Source: Arthrobacter sp. MYb214 (GTDB lineage: Bacteria > Actinomycetota > Actinomycetes > Actinomycetales > Micrococcaceae). Taken from it: a DNA stretch of 64,000 nucleotides. The stretch is from assembly GCF_002979865.1 (NCBI RefSeq), contig NZ_PCPZ01000003.1, positions 310,001-374,000 on the forward strand, given 5' to 3'. The notes under the pieces were generated by a model, which did not search any database, was not told the DNA's origin, and saw only the letters and a program-made list of their open reading frames with translations. How positions within the stretch are numbered: the stretch's first letter is position 1; every line of letters begins with the position of its first letter. This document shows positions 34,517 through 37,512 of this stretch, piece after piece. The position numbers were made by a program, and so were the translations under genes.

Positions 34517-34700
34517 GATCAATCCCCTTTCAGCTAGGCTGCGAATTTCCGGATGGCCGCAGCTTCATCCGCCTCGGCGGCTTGCGTTCTGCGTAAGCGG
34601 ATTCTGAAACAGTAGATCCCGTAGCCTGGCTGCATCTGCTTGCCCGATGGATTCTCATGGTTTTCCCATCAACCCAGAATGAATCGGACATGAAATCTGA

Positions 34701-34706
34701 ACTAGC
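34701..34706. repeat. Left target-site duplication copy (ACTAGC)
   Basis: ACTAGC abuts the left inverted repeat; ACTGGC abuts the right one at 37147-37152. Five of six bases match, and NCTAGN is the known preferred target of IS481-type elements. The TAG inside this copy (read on the minus strand) supplies the transposase stop codon. Confidence 0.7.
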
Positions 34707-35696
34707 TGTGAGGTCCAGGGACATTGTTTAGTCGGGCGAAGGGTGCGCAGCCAATCGCTGAGTGGTGTCGGTGGTGGTTGTAGAAGTGGAGCCAGCCGGG
34801 CAGAGCCAGGCGTCGCTCGGCGTTTGAACCGTAAAACTTGGCATAAGCCCACCCGCCCCCGAGTGTGCGGTGGAACCGCTCGATCGTCCCGTTCGTCTGC
34901 GGCTGGTAGGGAGGTGCTCGCTTGTGTCTGATGCCAAGCCGAGCGCAGAAGTCCCTCCAAAGGTGGGATCTGTAGGCCGACCCATTGTCGGATAGGACTC
35001 GCTCGACGGTCACGCCCCGTTCAGCGAACCAGGCCACAGCGCGTTCGAGAACTCCCACCGCTGTGCTTGCCCGCTCGTCCATGCAGATCTCTGCATAAGC
35101 GGCTCGGGGGTGGTCGTCGATCACTGTGTGAACGAACGCCGTTCCAGTCCGCGGCTTGTGGTCTTTGCCTCTGGGCAGTCCCGGAGTGGCGGTTCTGTTC
35201 CGTGCGCCTTGCTGCCGACCAACGTAACGATGTCCACCACCGTCGGGGATATTCCCGAACTTCGTGACATCGACATGGATCAACGATCCCGGATAAGGGT
35301 GCCCATGTCGCCGCAAGGGCTCACCAGTGACACGATCGATACGGGAGAGGCGGTTCACGCGGCAACGGGCGAGGACCGCGTGAACCCTGGACGCCGGGAG
35401 ACCAAGTCACGCAGCGATCTGGGCTGGACCAGCCGAAGTCGCAAGCGCAGATTGATGATCTGCTTCTTCTAGGCATGCTCGGGCGTCCTGCCTGGACTGC
35501 AATGCGGCCTGCTGGAGCGATCCTGCATCCCATGCCCACCCTCTTCCCGTCAACGACCGGCCCCCCCCTTCCGGGCAGTGATCGGAGAGAGCATATACAT
35601 CTTCGCTGTCATCGTGGCCGGATAGCCGTCTTCAACAATCAGACGGGCTATCCGGAGACGGGTACGAGGCGTGAACAGCGCATTTGGATCTGTCAT
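34702..35696 (-). pseudogene. IS481-family transposase, decayed
   Basis: The N-terminus from ATG 35696 reads MTDPNALFTPRTRLRIARLI, the HTH end of IS481 transposases. The same phase then meets TGA (after ITARKGGAGR), continues REEGGHGMQDRSSRPHCSPG, meets TAG, then gives KKQIINLRLRLRL. A frameshift moves to the final phase, which has another TGA (AQIAA*LGLPASRVHAVL). The DDE catalytic part is intact from residue NRLSRIDRVTGEP onward: HVDVTKFG, VLSDNGSAYRS, YQPQTNGTIERFH. At least three stops and a frameshift make it non-functional. A run of eight G near 35565 lies close to the first lesion. The ATG overlaps the exporter stop as ATGA. Confidence 0.9.
34707..34728 (+). repeat. Left terminal inverted repeat
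   Basis: TGTGAGGTCCAGGGACATTG and following TT match the right end except at two positions. It overlaps the last codons of the transposase reading frame. Confidence 0.85.
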
Positions 35697-36871
35697 CGAT
35701 TGGCCTCCGCAGTGGTTTCCAAAAGCGTGCGCCGGCTCAGCACCATGGTCAAGAGCGCGGCCGCCGCCAATGCCGCGGCCACCCAGACCGGCGCGAGCAC
35801 CCCCAACCCTGCCGCGAGCCCGAACGCGCCAAGCACAGGACCCGCCGCGGCACCGAGGTTCAATGCCGCGGTTGCGTACGAACCGCCCATCGTTGGAGCA
35901 GCCGACGCTGCATACAGCACACGCGTGATCAAGGTGCTGCCAACGCCGAACGACAGGAAGCCCTGAACGAAGACGAGGACGATAAGCGCAACGGGATGCG
36001 ACGCGACCAATGCCAATCCGATCCATCCTGTCAGCAGCAGCGGGCCGCCGACTGCAAGCACGACGCCGGGGCGTTGATCTGACAGTCTCCCAGCGATCGT
36101 GACGCCAAGGAATGATCCGACGCCGAACATCACCAGTGCGAAGGACACCCACCCATCAGCCATCCCCGCAGTCTCGGTCACTACGGGGGCGAGGAAGGTG
36201 AACGCCGCAAAGGTCCCTCCGTTGATCAGCGCTCCAAGTGCCATGGCCAGGATGAGCCGCGGCGTCGCCAACTGGCTGAGCTCGGCACGAAGCCTTGGCG
36301 AGGACCCGGCAGTTGCGGTCTGACCGGCATTGTTCGTGATCCCTCGAACGACTCCGAAGACCGCCGGAATACAGAGGATGGCGACTGCCCAGAACGTCGT
36401 TCGCCAGCCCAACGCTGTGCCGAGCAGAGACCCAGCGGGGACACCCGCGACCGTTGCGATCGTCGTGCCGGAGAGCAGGATCGACAGTGCACGCCCCTTC
36501 TGGTTCGCTGGCACGAGAGTAGTGGCCGTGCTCAGTGCTACGGCGAGGAATCCTGCGTTTGCAAGAGCGCTGAGCACCCGGGTGATGAGGAGGAGAGCGA
36601 ACACGGGTGTCATCGCTCCGATGACGTGGCTTCCCGCGAACACGAGAAGGCAGACGATCAACGTGAGCCGCGGTGGCCAACGGCGAGCGAATGCGGCCAT
36701 CACTGGCGCGCCGATGACCATACCGATCGCGAAGGCCGAGGTCAGCAGGCCCGCCGTGCCGACCGAGACGTCAAGCTCGGTCGCGATCGCGGGGAGCAAT
36801 CCCGCGAGCATGAATTCTGAAGTGCCCATGACGAAAACCGCCAAGGCAAGCATGTAGAGAGCAAAAGGCAT
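35693..36871 (-). CDS. cmx: Chloramphenicol exporter, MFS family (Cmx/CmlR-like)
   Basis: A 392-residue 12-helix drug:H+ antiporter, intact. It begins MPFALYMLALAVFVMGTSEF, then MLAGLLPAIATELDVS, which I recall as nearly identical to corynebacterial Cmx and close to Streptomyces CmlR. Motif C of drug antiporters lies in helix 5 (GTTIATVAGVPAGSLLGTAL). It sits inside the IS481-type element, upstream of the transposase, and its TGA overlaps the transposase ATG. A leader peptide frame and hairpin precede it, suggesting drug-inducible translation. Predicted phenotype: chloramphenicol resistance by efflux. Identity to Cmx is from memory, not from a search. Confidence 0.9.
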   Translation of the reverse strand: MPFALYMLALAVFVMGTSEFMLAGLLPAIATELDVSVGTAGLLTSAFAIGMVIGAPVMAAFARRWPPRLTLIVCLLVFAGSHVIGAMTPVFALLLITRVLSALANAGFLAVALSTATTLVPANQKGRALSILLSGTTIATVAGVPAGSLLGTALGWRTTFWAVAILCIPAVFGVVRGITNNAGQTATAGSSPRLRAELSQLATPRLILAMALGALINGGTFAAFTFLAPVVTETAGMADGWVSFALVMFGVGSFLGVTIAGRLSDQRPGVVLAVGGPLLLTGWIGLALVASHPVALIVLVFVQGFLSFGVGSTLITRVLYAASAAPTMGGSYATAALNLGAAAGPVLGAFGLAAGLGVLAPVWVAAALAAAALLTMVLSRRTLLETTAEANR

Positions 36872-36892
36872 CGAGTACTCCGAGGTGAGAAA

Positions 36893-36946
36893 TCAAGAAA
36901 TGGTTCTTCTTGTCACCACGGCCAGCACCCCGGGTACGCCAGACAT
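36893..36946 (-). CDS. Possible 17-residue leader peptide of cmx attenuator
   Basis: ATG 36946 to TGA 36893 encodes MSGVPGVLAVVTRRTIS, ending 22 bases before the cmx ATG. Its ribosome site is weak (GTGTGGGCGT). Just upstream the transcript folds ACGCCCAC/GTGGGCGT, and within its end CAAGAA/TTCTTG can pair. Translational attenuation by a short leader is established for other chloramphenicol exporters and acetyltransferases; its use here is inference. Confidence 0.45.
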   Translation of the reverse strand: MSGVPGVLAVVTRRTIS

Positions 36947-36969
36947 ACGCCCACACAGATCGTGGGCGT
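36947..36969 (-). promoter_or_regulatory. 8-bp perfect hairpin in cmx leader
   Basis: ACGCCCAC and GTGGGCGT pair around a 7-base loop, directly overlapping the ribosome site of the possible leader peptide. It may tune leader or exporter expression. Confidence 0.5.
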
Positions 36970-37124
36970 CGTAACTACTGGTTGAAGGGGCTGGCGGTAT
37001 GACCGACAACCCCGGACTTGTCTGACTCGGGACTCGACATATCCCGAACTCTACAGCGCTCGACTGCGCGTGGTGTGGATAGACACGTCCCTAATCGGCA
37101 CGACGTCGTTGCGCGCGGGGGCAG

Positions 37125-37146
37125 AACACTGTCCCTGGACATCACA
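37125..37146 (-). repeat. Right terminal inverted repeat
   Basis: On the minus strand: TGTGATGTCCAGGGACAGTG then TT. It mirrors the left end and is flanked by ACTGGC. Confidence 0.85.
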
Positions 37147-37512
37147 ACTGGCTCTGGAAGCGGCAACGATCTGCCCGCAGCTGCGGCGAACAGCAAGCAC
37201 GGCTGTGGACCTTGGAAATGCGGTCCGTTCCGGCGTACATACGAAGCCTAGCGACGGGCAGTCCGCGGCAGACCAAACAAACTACTGACTAGGCCGGAAG
37301 CTAAGTTCAAAAAGCTCTCCTCTGAGCCTGAAAATTAGCTGAGAACCCAGGGGCACCCCTCCCGGTCGTAGACCAAGTGGCCTAGATTTAAAGCACACTC
37401 CGCTTCTCAACGACGGCGAACCTTGCCTGCTGGCAGACTCATCGGCAATCTGCGAAGTGGCGTGACTTATGGGGTGCACTCGAGAGTTACGAACAAAGTG
37501 GAGGTAGTACTA
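37147..37512. other. Intergenic stretch right of the mobile element
   Basis: About 365 bases between the element's right end and the next gene. No frame has both a start signal and protein-like composition. The promoter of the 37513 gene should lie in the last 150 bases. Confidence 0.5.

What the first reader, a model, noticed from the sequence alone, without database searches (positions are those of the whole stretch)
34707..37146. IS481-type element that carries a chloramphenicol exporter between its own inverted repeats
Both ends share TGTGAnGTCCAGGGACAnTG, and ACTAGC/ACTGGC flank the unit, fitting the NCTAGN target habit of IS481. Between them are an intact cmx-like exporter and the transposase, so the resistance gene is a passenger inside a single IS, not a composite transposon. 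It resembles Tn5564, known from corynebacteria. Finding it in a Micrococcaceae-like chromosome points to spread of cmx across actinobacterial genera.
Basis: partly seen in the sequence, partly recalled or inferred. Interest (0 to 1): 0.75.

Follow-up and report, generated by a model that had tools for sequence, protein, structure and literature searches.

The report
Stranded chloramphenicol-resistance transposon with drug-sensing switch
A bacterium of the Micrococcus family carries an old, no longer self-mobile cousin of a known resistance transposon, and the pump gene inside it sits behind a small, widely conserved RNA switch that looks built to turn the pump on when chloramphenicol stalls ribosomes.

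Summary
The element is real: 2,440 bp, inverted repeats matching at 18 of 20, target repeat at 5 of 6 (ACTAGC/ACTGGC), an intact Cmx-type exporter and an IS481 transposase. It is collinear with the Tn5564/Tn45 (IS5564) unit, so the passenger-in-one-IS reading is right but already known. Two corrections. First, it is not the spreading clone: 14 clone copies are 99.3-100% alike, the window is about 88% to them, its transposase is frame-broken and its target repeat has changed. It says little about recent spread. Second, the strongest signal inside it was missed. A 21-codon leader (MSSPESDK...) starts 7 nt after a -10 box, so its mRNA is probably leaderless, and precedes cmx in 88 of 88 loci. Its codons 6-7 (Ser-Asp, or Ala) fit chloramphenicol's known stalling preference. 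A leader hairpin and an alternative helix show covariation; two helices that can mask the cmx ribosome-binding site are conserved, with little or no covariation. A covariance model gave 44 strong hits, all 44 before cmx homologues; Rfam has no match. Best reading: chloramphenicol-induced translational attenuation of cmx, inferred, not tested at the bench.

The parts
34701..34706 (.). left target repeat ACTAGC
34707..34726 (+). left terminal inverted repeat
34702..35358 (-). open C-terminal piece (218 aa) of the IS481-family transposase; its stop codon TAG lies in the target site
   Evidence: NF033577 203.3 bits (curated cutoff 224), rve domain; 88.7% nucleotide identity to the matching part of the pA501 gene
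35359..35696 (-). N-terminal third of the transposase gene; residues 1-87 lie in a different frame from the rest (broken)
   Evidence: tblastn pieces kept apart
35693..36871 (-). cmx-type chloramphenicol exporter, 392 aa, stop codon overlapping the transposase start
36869..36881 (-). cmx start codon (36869-36871) and Shine-Dalgarno GGAG (36878-36881)
   Evidence: GGAG invariant in alignment A2 of 53 sequences
36880..36921 (-). helix P5, pairs bases next to and within the cmx Shine-Dalgarno
36921..36931 (-). 3' strand of alternative helix P2alt (competes with P2)
36975..37040 (-). leader ORF, 21 codons and stop, MSSPESDKSGVVGHTASPFNQ
36987..37013 (-). helix P2 inside the leader ORF
37048..37053 (-). 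-10 box TAGAGT, 7 nt before the leader start codon (no -35 consensus found)
37127..37146 (-). right terminal inverted repeat
37147..37152 (.). right target repeat ACTGGC

Best explanation
This is a diverged, no longer self-mobile member of the Tn5564/Tn45 (IS5564, IS481 family) lineage. At some time an ordinary 1.1-kb IS481 element gained cmx with its leader between its right end and its transposase start codon, giving a cmx-tnp unit that moves by its own ends into CTAG sites (architecture shown; capture order inferred). The window copy inserted long enough ago for its target repeat to change and its transposase to lose frame, while cmx stayed intact under purifying selection (shown; timing inferred). 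The cargo carries its own switch: transcription starts at or next to the start codon of a 21-codon leader (inferred from -10 spacing). Without drug the leader is read through, and helices P1, P2 and P5 hide the cmx Shine-Dalgarno. Chloramphenicol should stall the ribosome with Ser/Ala6 penultimate and codon 7 in the P site; that ribosome covers the 5' strands of P1 and P2, P2alt can form, and cmx is translated (helices supported by conservation, P2 and P2alt also by covariation; drug response inferred).
For: Element: 14 plasmid records match over 100% of its length in the same order at 87.5-87.8%, 13 of them in one piece. 14 full-length clone copies are 99.3-100% alike, L061 about 95%, the window 87-88% to all 15. 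11 of these 15 have identical 6-bp NCTAGN repeats. Eight cargo-less relatives of 1,094-1,113 bp share the end sequence; 6 of the 8 have identical 6-bp repeats. Against pA501, cmx dN/dS 0.20 and the open transposase piece 0.17, dS 0.30-0.35. Switch: leader in 88 of 88 loci, -10 box at -13 (79) or -12 (9), and a -10 box at -12 to -14 in 44 of 44 strong model hits, all with ATG. Codons 3-5 vary almost only at third positions, codon 6 is Ser or Ala. Ser6 goes with Asp7 in 41 of 41 and Ala6 with Asp7 in 1 of 15 thinned leaders (69 of 71 and 1 of 17 in all 88), as expected if Ala at -1 is strongest and Asp at 0 potentiates (PMC11832420, passages). RNAalifold finds P2 and P5 unaided. P2+P5 90.0% paired against 44.5-51.6% slid, 25 double-change cells against 6.4 in shuffles. 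P2alt 86.9% against 24.7-50.4% slid, 24 double-change cells against 13.2. P1 90.2% against 19.0-48.0% slid. With nt 1-36 masked, P2alt forms in 7 of 7 folds. The leader region is better kept (94.8%) than cmx (88.7%). 44 of 44 model hits at E<=1e-9 precede cmx. No terminator-like site.
Against: No expression data. P1 has no covariation, so coding constraint could explain it. Double-change pairs are 4 in P2, 1 in outer P5 and 4 in inner P5, which pairs in only 70.7% of cells; slid versions still reach 5 pairs and 19 cells, and RNAalifold's covariation term is small (-0.76). For P2alt, two column pairs give 20 of 24 double-change cells, one of them unpaired in 24 sequences; the count of such pairs is matched by 61 of 500 shuffles. 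P5 persisted in 5 of 7 masked folds, and 2 of 10 unmasked folds (L017, L088) already show the alternative pairing. Over codons 2-18 as a whole third positions are hardly more variable than others (0.58 against 0.49 and 0.52 bits): coding-like constraint is limited to the first codons. No sigma-70 consensus with a -35 box was found. The Ser/Asp rule may reflect few inherited changes. The empty site is too diverged to prove the target repeat, and tree support near the window copy is weak.
Confidence: 0.75

Rival explanations
1. A recent arrival of the clinical Tn5564/Tn45 clone in this genus.
For: Same architecture, ends and target habit; the clone does occur in the same genus (G003).
Against: About 12% nucleotide divergence from each of the 14 clone copies compared, which are 99.3-100% alike; changed target repeat; broken transposase.
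Confidence: 0.03
2. cmx is a native chromosomal gene and the IS landed beside it by chance, so there is no single unit.
For: Free cmx genes exist in the genus (L005, L006, and frame-broken L007) and elsewhere.
Against: Both ends and the cmx-tnp overlap are collinear with 14 plasmid records; G007 and G008 lack the whole block at this locus.
Confidence: 0.03
3. The leader acts by transcription attenuation (terminator or Rho) rather than by hiding the ribosome-binding site.
For: Leader plus alternative helices is also the layout of transcription attenuators.
Against: No intrinsic-terminator-like site in window 36800-37200 (0 found, shuffles 0.4); P5 and P1 pair the Shine-Dalgarno and start region itself. 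Rho was not testable.
Confidence: 0.2
4. The conserved segment is a DNA operator or an unrelated structured element, and the short ORF is incidental.
For: Conservation is high throughout the segment, and past codon 6 it does not look coding.
Against: Third-position variation in codons 3-5 and only Ser/Ala at codon 6; start codon only ATG or GTG in 88 loci, the only starts that leaderless initiation accepted in mycobacteria (PMC4633059, passages); pair covariation.
Confidence: 0.1

Closest known systems
Tn5564 of Corynebacterium striatum pTP10 (IS5564, IS481 family)
   Same: Same end sequences and order, cmx next to the transposase start, 88.2% identity over element positions 1-2347.
   Different: The pTP10 copy carries IS1513 (IS30-like) in its right end; the window copy is 12% diverged, transposase broken, target repeat changed.
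Tn45 / tnp45 cmx transposon of corynebacteria
   Same: A transposase gene plus cmx (PMC3350403, passages); transposition stated to be validated in C. glutamicum, not detected in proteobacteria (PMC5467266, passages).
   Different: Framed hits there are over 99% identical to one Cmx protein; the window copy is a separate, stranded lineage.
cmlA integron cassette (translation attenuation)
   Same: Short leader ORF, two alternative stem-loops, masking of the ribosome-binding site, chloramphenicol-induced stalling (PMC8876359, passages).
   Different: cmlA leader is 9 aa with its own initiation region; the cmx leader has 21 codons, is probably leaderless, and is found in Actinobacteria.
Leaderless cysteine-rich uORFs of mycobacteria
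   Same: Leaderless short ORF proposed to attenuate the gene behind it (PMC4633059, passages; the 2020 follow-up seen only as a reference entry).
   Different: They are proposed to sense cysteine, not a drug.
cmr of Rhodococcus fascians
   Same: pA21d2 has a Cmx/CmrA gene with the same type of leader (MTSPESDRAG...) and -10 spacing. Chloramphenicol induction of cmr is recalled from a 1992 paper, not read.
   Different: Only 2.4 kb around that gene was fetched; no transposase is annotated there.

Membership tests
Tn5564/Tn45 (IS5564) lineage | Terminal inverted repeats TGTGATGTCCAGGGAC... | tested here: met
   18/20 between ends; 15/16 and 16/16 to the consensus
Tn5564/Tn45 (IS5564) lineage | 6-bp NCTAGN target duplication | tested here: inconclusive
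   ACTAGC/ACTGGC, one mismatch; empty site too diverged
Tn5564/Tn45 (IS5564) lineage | cmx between right end and transposase start, full collinearity | tested here: met
   13 plasmid records in a single full-length alignment, one more in two pieces, 87.5-87.8%
Tn5564/Tn45 (IS5564) lineage | Intact 329-aa IS481 transposase (autonomous mobility) | tested here: not met
   only 218 aa open; IS481 curated cutoff missed, 203.3 against 224. So filed as a stranded relative, not an active member
Composite transposon | Cargo flanked by two IS copies | tested here: not met
   apart from the two ends, the best match to the 16-bp end in the window has 3 mismatches; one transposase gene between the ends
Cmx chloramphenicol exporter | Cmx/CmrA equivalog model above cutoff | tested here: met
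   NF033135 501.6 against 400
Cmx chloramphenicol exporter | Allele-level Cmx model above cutoff | tested here: not met
   NF000510 748.6 against 800
Cmx chloramphenicol exporter | Confers chloramphenicol resistance | not testable with these tools
   needs susceptibility test
Chloramphenicol-inducible translation attenuator | Translated leader ORF with a drug-arrest motif | tested here: inconclusive
   met at sequence level: 88 of 88 loci, Ser/Ala6; translation and arrest not tested
Chloramphenicol-inducible translation attenuator | Helix masking the ribosome-binding site and an exclusive alternative helix | tested here: inconclusive
   P2 and P2alt covary; P5 outer has one covarying pair, P1 none; P5 stays in 5 of 7 masked folds
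Chloramphenicol-inducible translation attenuator | Induction by chloramphenicol | not testable with these tools
   needs reporter or toeprint assay
Any Rfam 15 family | Match to a covariance model | tested here: not met
   no match up to E=5 in 34600-37300

The most novel reading that the evidence does not exclude
The cmx/cmr exporters of Actinobacteria share one undescribed regulatory RNA: a leaderless leader peptide that reads chloramphenicol through a Ser-Asp or Ala arrest motif and switches between two mutually exclusive helices to expose the exporter's ribosome-binding site. Tn5564-type elements captured gene and switch together and carry the switch to other phyla, where leaderless initiation may be poor, which would fit the published need for an added promoter in E. 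coli. In the same view these elements are old, with decayed relatives (window, L110/L203, L119) marking a fossil record that predates the one clone now spreading.
Probability: 0.5. Interest if true: 0.62.

Novelty: new variant of a known kind. Interest (0 to 1): 0.5.

Why it matters
It separates two stories that look alike: a recent, near-identical resistance clone and an older, diverse set of stranded relatives in environmental Actinobacteria. And it suggests that the mobile resistance gene travels with its own drug-sensing control. If the switch works as proposed, cmx resistance would be inducible, so tests without prior drug exposure could under-read it, and there would be a conserved, testable leaderless arrest sequence for chloramphenicol besides the cat and cmlA examples.

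Tried and rejected
Recent clone arrival and chance neighbourhood were rejected. The first idea that element position 2334 (window 37040) is the capture junction, because homology to native cmx genes stops there, was dropped: that point is the leader start codon, and in nearer free genes homology reaches the -10 box. The upstream capture junction stays unresolved; the stretch next to the right repeat matches the eight cargo-less relatives only at the repeat and a few bases beyond. Relic test on 92 loci: 21 with both ends; 14 with one end above its shuffles, of which five (L090, L091, L097, L102, L112) are partial clone copies, L110, L203 and L119 clear relics, L199 weak, and L136, L144, L151, L152, L160 (scores 25-31) taken as noise; 57 no trace. 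Literature searches listed no paper on a cmx leader (54: the letters MSSPES in 0 papers); the library lacks most subscription journals, so an earlier description (for example of cmr, 1992, recalled) is possible. E. coli genomes: no near match to the canonical element. Naming the host genus through plasmid records failed; Glutamicibacter is only a guess. Three of 56 thinned leaders (L063, L109, L158, longer spacers) were left out of alignment A2 (53), and 46 of those 53 went into model R1. Eight of the 44 model hits have a variant leader (MACPES... or MSTPEAS...) that my first pattern missed. After re-checking, confidence was lowered from 0.80 to 0.75 because P2alt rests mainly on two column pairs and 2 of 10 unmasked folds show the alternative form; the operator rival was raised from 0.07 to 0.10 because coding constraint is limited to the first codons.

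Full report
Observation. The two ends at 34707 and 37146 match at 18 of 20 positions; one of 4,050,870 random arm pairs did as well. Flanks are ACTAGC and ACTGGC. Between them lie an intact 392-aa exporter and a transposase gene. The exporter passes the Cmx/CmrA model but not the allele-level Cmx model. The transposase is open for its C-terminal 218 residues, which score as IS481 family below the curated cutoff; residues 1-87 lie in another frame.

What it is. A search of 72,556 plasmid records gave 97 with a match, 18 with at least 80% coverage (60 rows listed); 14 rows cover the full 2,440 bp in order at 87.5-87.8%, one of them (Dietzia) split by an IS256-family insertion. They include C. 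jeikeium pA501, Glutamicibacter, Paenarthrobacter, Nocardioides, Pseudomonas, Comamonas and Shinella. In pTP10 the same unit is split by IS1513 at element position 2347. In 395 genomes of the family, five other genomes hold six full-length copies, 87-88% to the window. Among 15 full copies compared with the window, 14 are 99.3-100% alike, L061 is about 95%, and the window is 87.0-88.0% to all 15. Further copies from genome contigs are 98-100% to pA501 (L084-L087, L104 at 98-99%). Eleven of the 15 have identical 6-bp NCTAGN repeats, two keep CTAG on both sides with different outer bases, two lost one side. So among the copies seen here the window copy is a separate lineage. cmx dS to pA501 is 0.30 with dN/dS 0.20; the open transposase piece has dN/dS 0.17, so the transposase was probably under selection for most of this divergence and broke later (inference).

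Anatomy. Fifteen IS481 relatives without cmx were scanned; eight have both ends recognisable and measure 1,094-1,113 bp, six of the eight with identical 6-bp repeats. The cmx element is such an IS with about 1.35 kb added between right end and transposase start, the cmx stop overlapping the transposase ATG. Native-type cmx genes without IS occur in the genus at 77% and 65% protein identity (L005, L006), and in frame-broken form in L007. Of 32 divergent loci tested, only L107 has transposase, and only L107 and L119 an end repeat. Decayed relatives: L119 (Saccharopolyspora, right repeat and cmx, no transposase found), L110 and L203 (cmx with a trace of the transposase start), L199 weak. The tree places the window near the canonical clade, L110/L203, L108/L114, L109/L199 and L088, with short, weakly supported internodes.

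Empty locus. The neighbouring stretches match G007 and G008 at 82-86%. Flanks joined without the element align at 69-70%, the local match running 13 nt past the junction. The element is absent there; the single target copy cannot be read at this divergence.

The switch. Upstream of cmx the conserved segment begins with a -10 box, then 7 nt, then ATG TCG AGT CCC GAG TCA GAC AAG. The leader was found in 88 of 88 loci: window, seven loci from earlier calls and the 80 best of 242 relatives in genome contigs; many are clone copies, 56 remain after thinning. TANNNT starts at -13 in 79 and -12 in 9; a scan for a full sigma-70 consensus found none. Start codons are ATG or GTG only, the only leaderless starts that worked in mycobacteria (PMC4633059, passages). 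Codons 3-5 vary almost only in the third position and codon 6 is Ser or Ala, but over codons 2-18 the third position is hardly more variable than the others. Ser6-Asp7 41 of 41 and Ala6-Asp7 1 of 15 in the thinned set; 69 of 71 and 1 of 17 in all 88 (relatedness not corrected). Chloramphenicol favours Ala, less Ser or Thr, at the penultimate position, and Asp at position 0 potentiates (PMC11832420, passages).

RNA evidence. On 53 leaders aligned by sequence alone RNAalifold returns P2 and P5, covariation term -0.76. P2+P5: 90.0% of 1,374 cells paired; slid versions 44.5-51.6%; 9 pairs with double changes against 4.3 in shuffles (slid: up to 5), 25 such cells against 6.4 (slid: up to 19). By helix: P2 96.7% paired, 4 such pairs; outer P5 97.6%, 1; inner P5 70.7%, 4. 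P1 (leader nt 3-14 with the Shine-Dalgarno and start region): 90.2% paired, no double change. P2alt: 86.9% paired, 24 double-change cells against 13.2; two column pairs give 10 each, one of them unpaired in 24 sequences; covariation score 0.155 against 0.117 in shuffles and up to 0.137 slid. Of 10 unmasked folds 8 show P2 and 2 (L017, L088) the alternative pairing. Masking nt 1-36 gave P2alt in 7 of 7 folds, but P5 persisted in 5 of 7. So the alternative helix is supported by evolution, and its effect on P5 is not settled by energy. No terminator-like site was found.

Distribution. A 64-position model R1 from 46 leaders was run on 395 family, 396 phylum and 297 order genomes (the own genome is in each). 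At E<=1e-9 there are 44 distinct hits, and all 44 have a cmx homologue downstream; all 44 start with ATG, 44 have TANNNT at -12 to -14, and codons 6-7 read SD 37, SN 2, AS 4, AD 1. Of the eight family hits at 1.4e-4 to 8.2e-4 none has cmx; of three order hits at 4e-6 to 9e-6 one does (L213, 54% identity). The model was built from cmx leaders and some hits are training loci, so this shows specificity, not independent discovery. Only 4 of 396 phylum genomes, the own one included, hit, so the switch is a companion of cmx and not common. The R. fascians plasmid pA21d2 has it too (70.7 bits). Rfam gives nothing up to E=5. The leader region is 94.8% identical between window and pA501 against 88.7% for cmx and 72.9% for the stretch next to the right repeat.

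Verdict. The given finding is a known kind of element in a separate, stranded lineage. The added value is the conserved leader, a new variant of the known cat/cmlA type of drug-sensing attenuation.

Noticed in passing
34701-34706 and left flanks of 14 of the 15 full copies (all but L048): The transposase gene appears to take its TAG stop from the CTAG target, so its last residue and stop depend on the insertion site (in L017 the CDS runs 5 nt past the element). L048, whose left flank lost CTAG, has no transposase CDS listed (the PLSDB gene table is incomplete).
   Followed up: partly
own genome G000 C1:612628-613095 (L002/L003): A second, decayed cmx relative (76% and 83% nucleotide identity in two stretches, residues 194-318 matched in one frame) without a leader match: remains of an older native-type exporter.
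   Followed up: partly
L107, Brevibacterium antiquum: A copy 97-98% like the clone, both ends and CCTAGA on both sides, with stretches missing from cmx and the transposase: another stranded element.
   Followed up: no
L063/L169 (G371): Leader extended to 33 codons by a tandem repeat (CLQLIH twice) while cmx there matches in two frames.
   Followed up: no
G003:C1:3278471-3280908 (L004): The widespread clone sits in the one-contig genome of a congener, so both lineages occur in one genus.
   Followed up: partly
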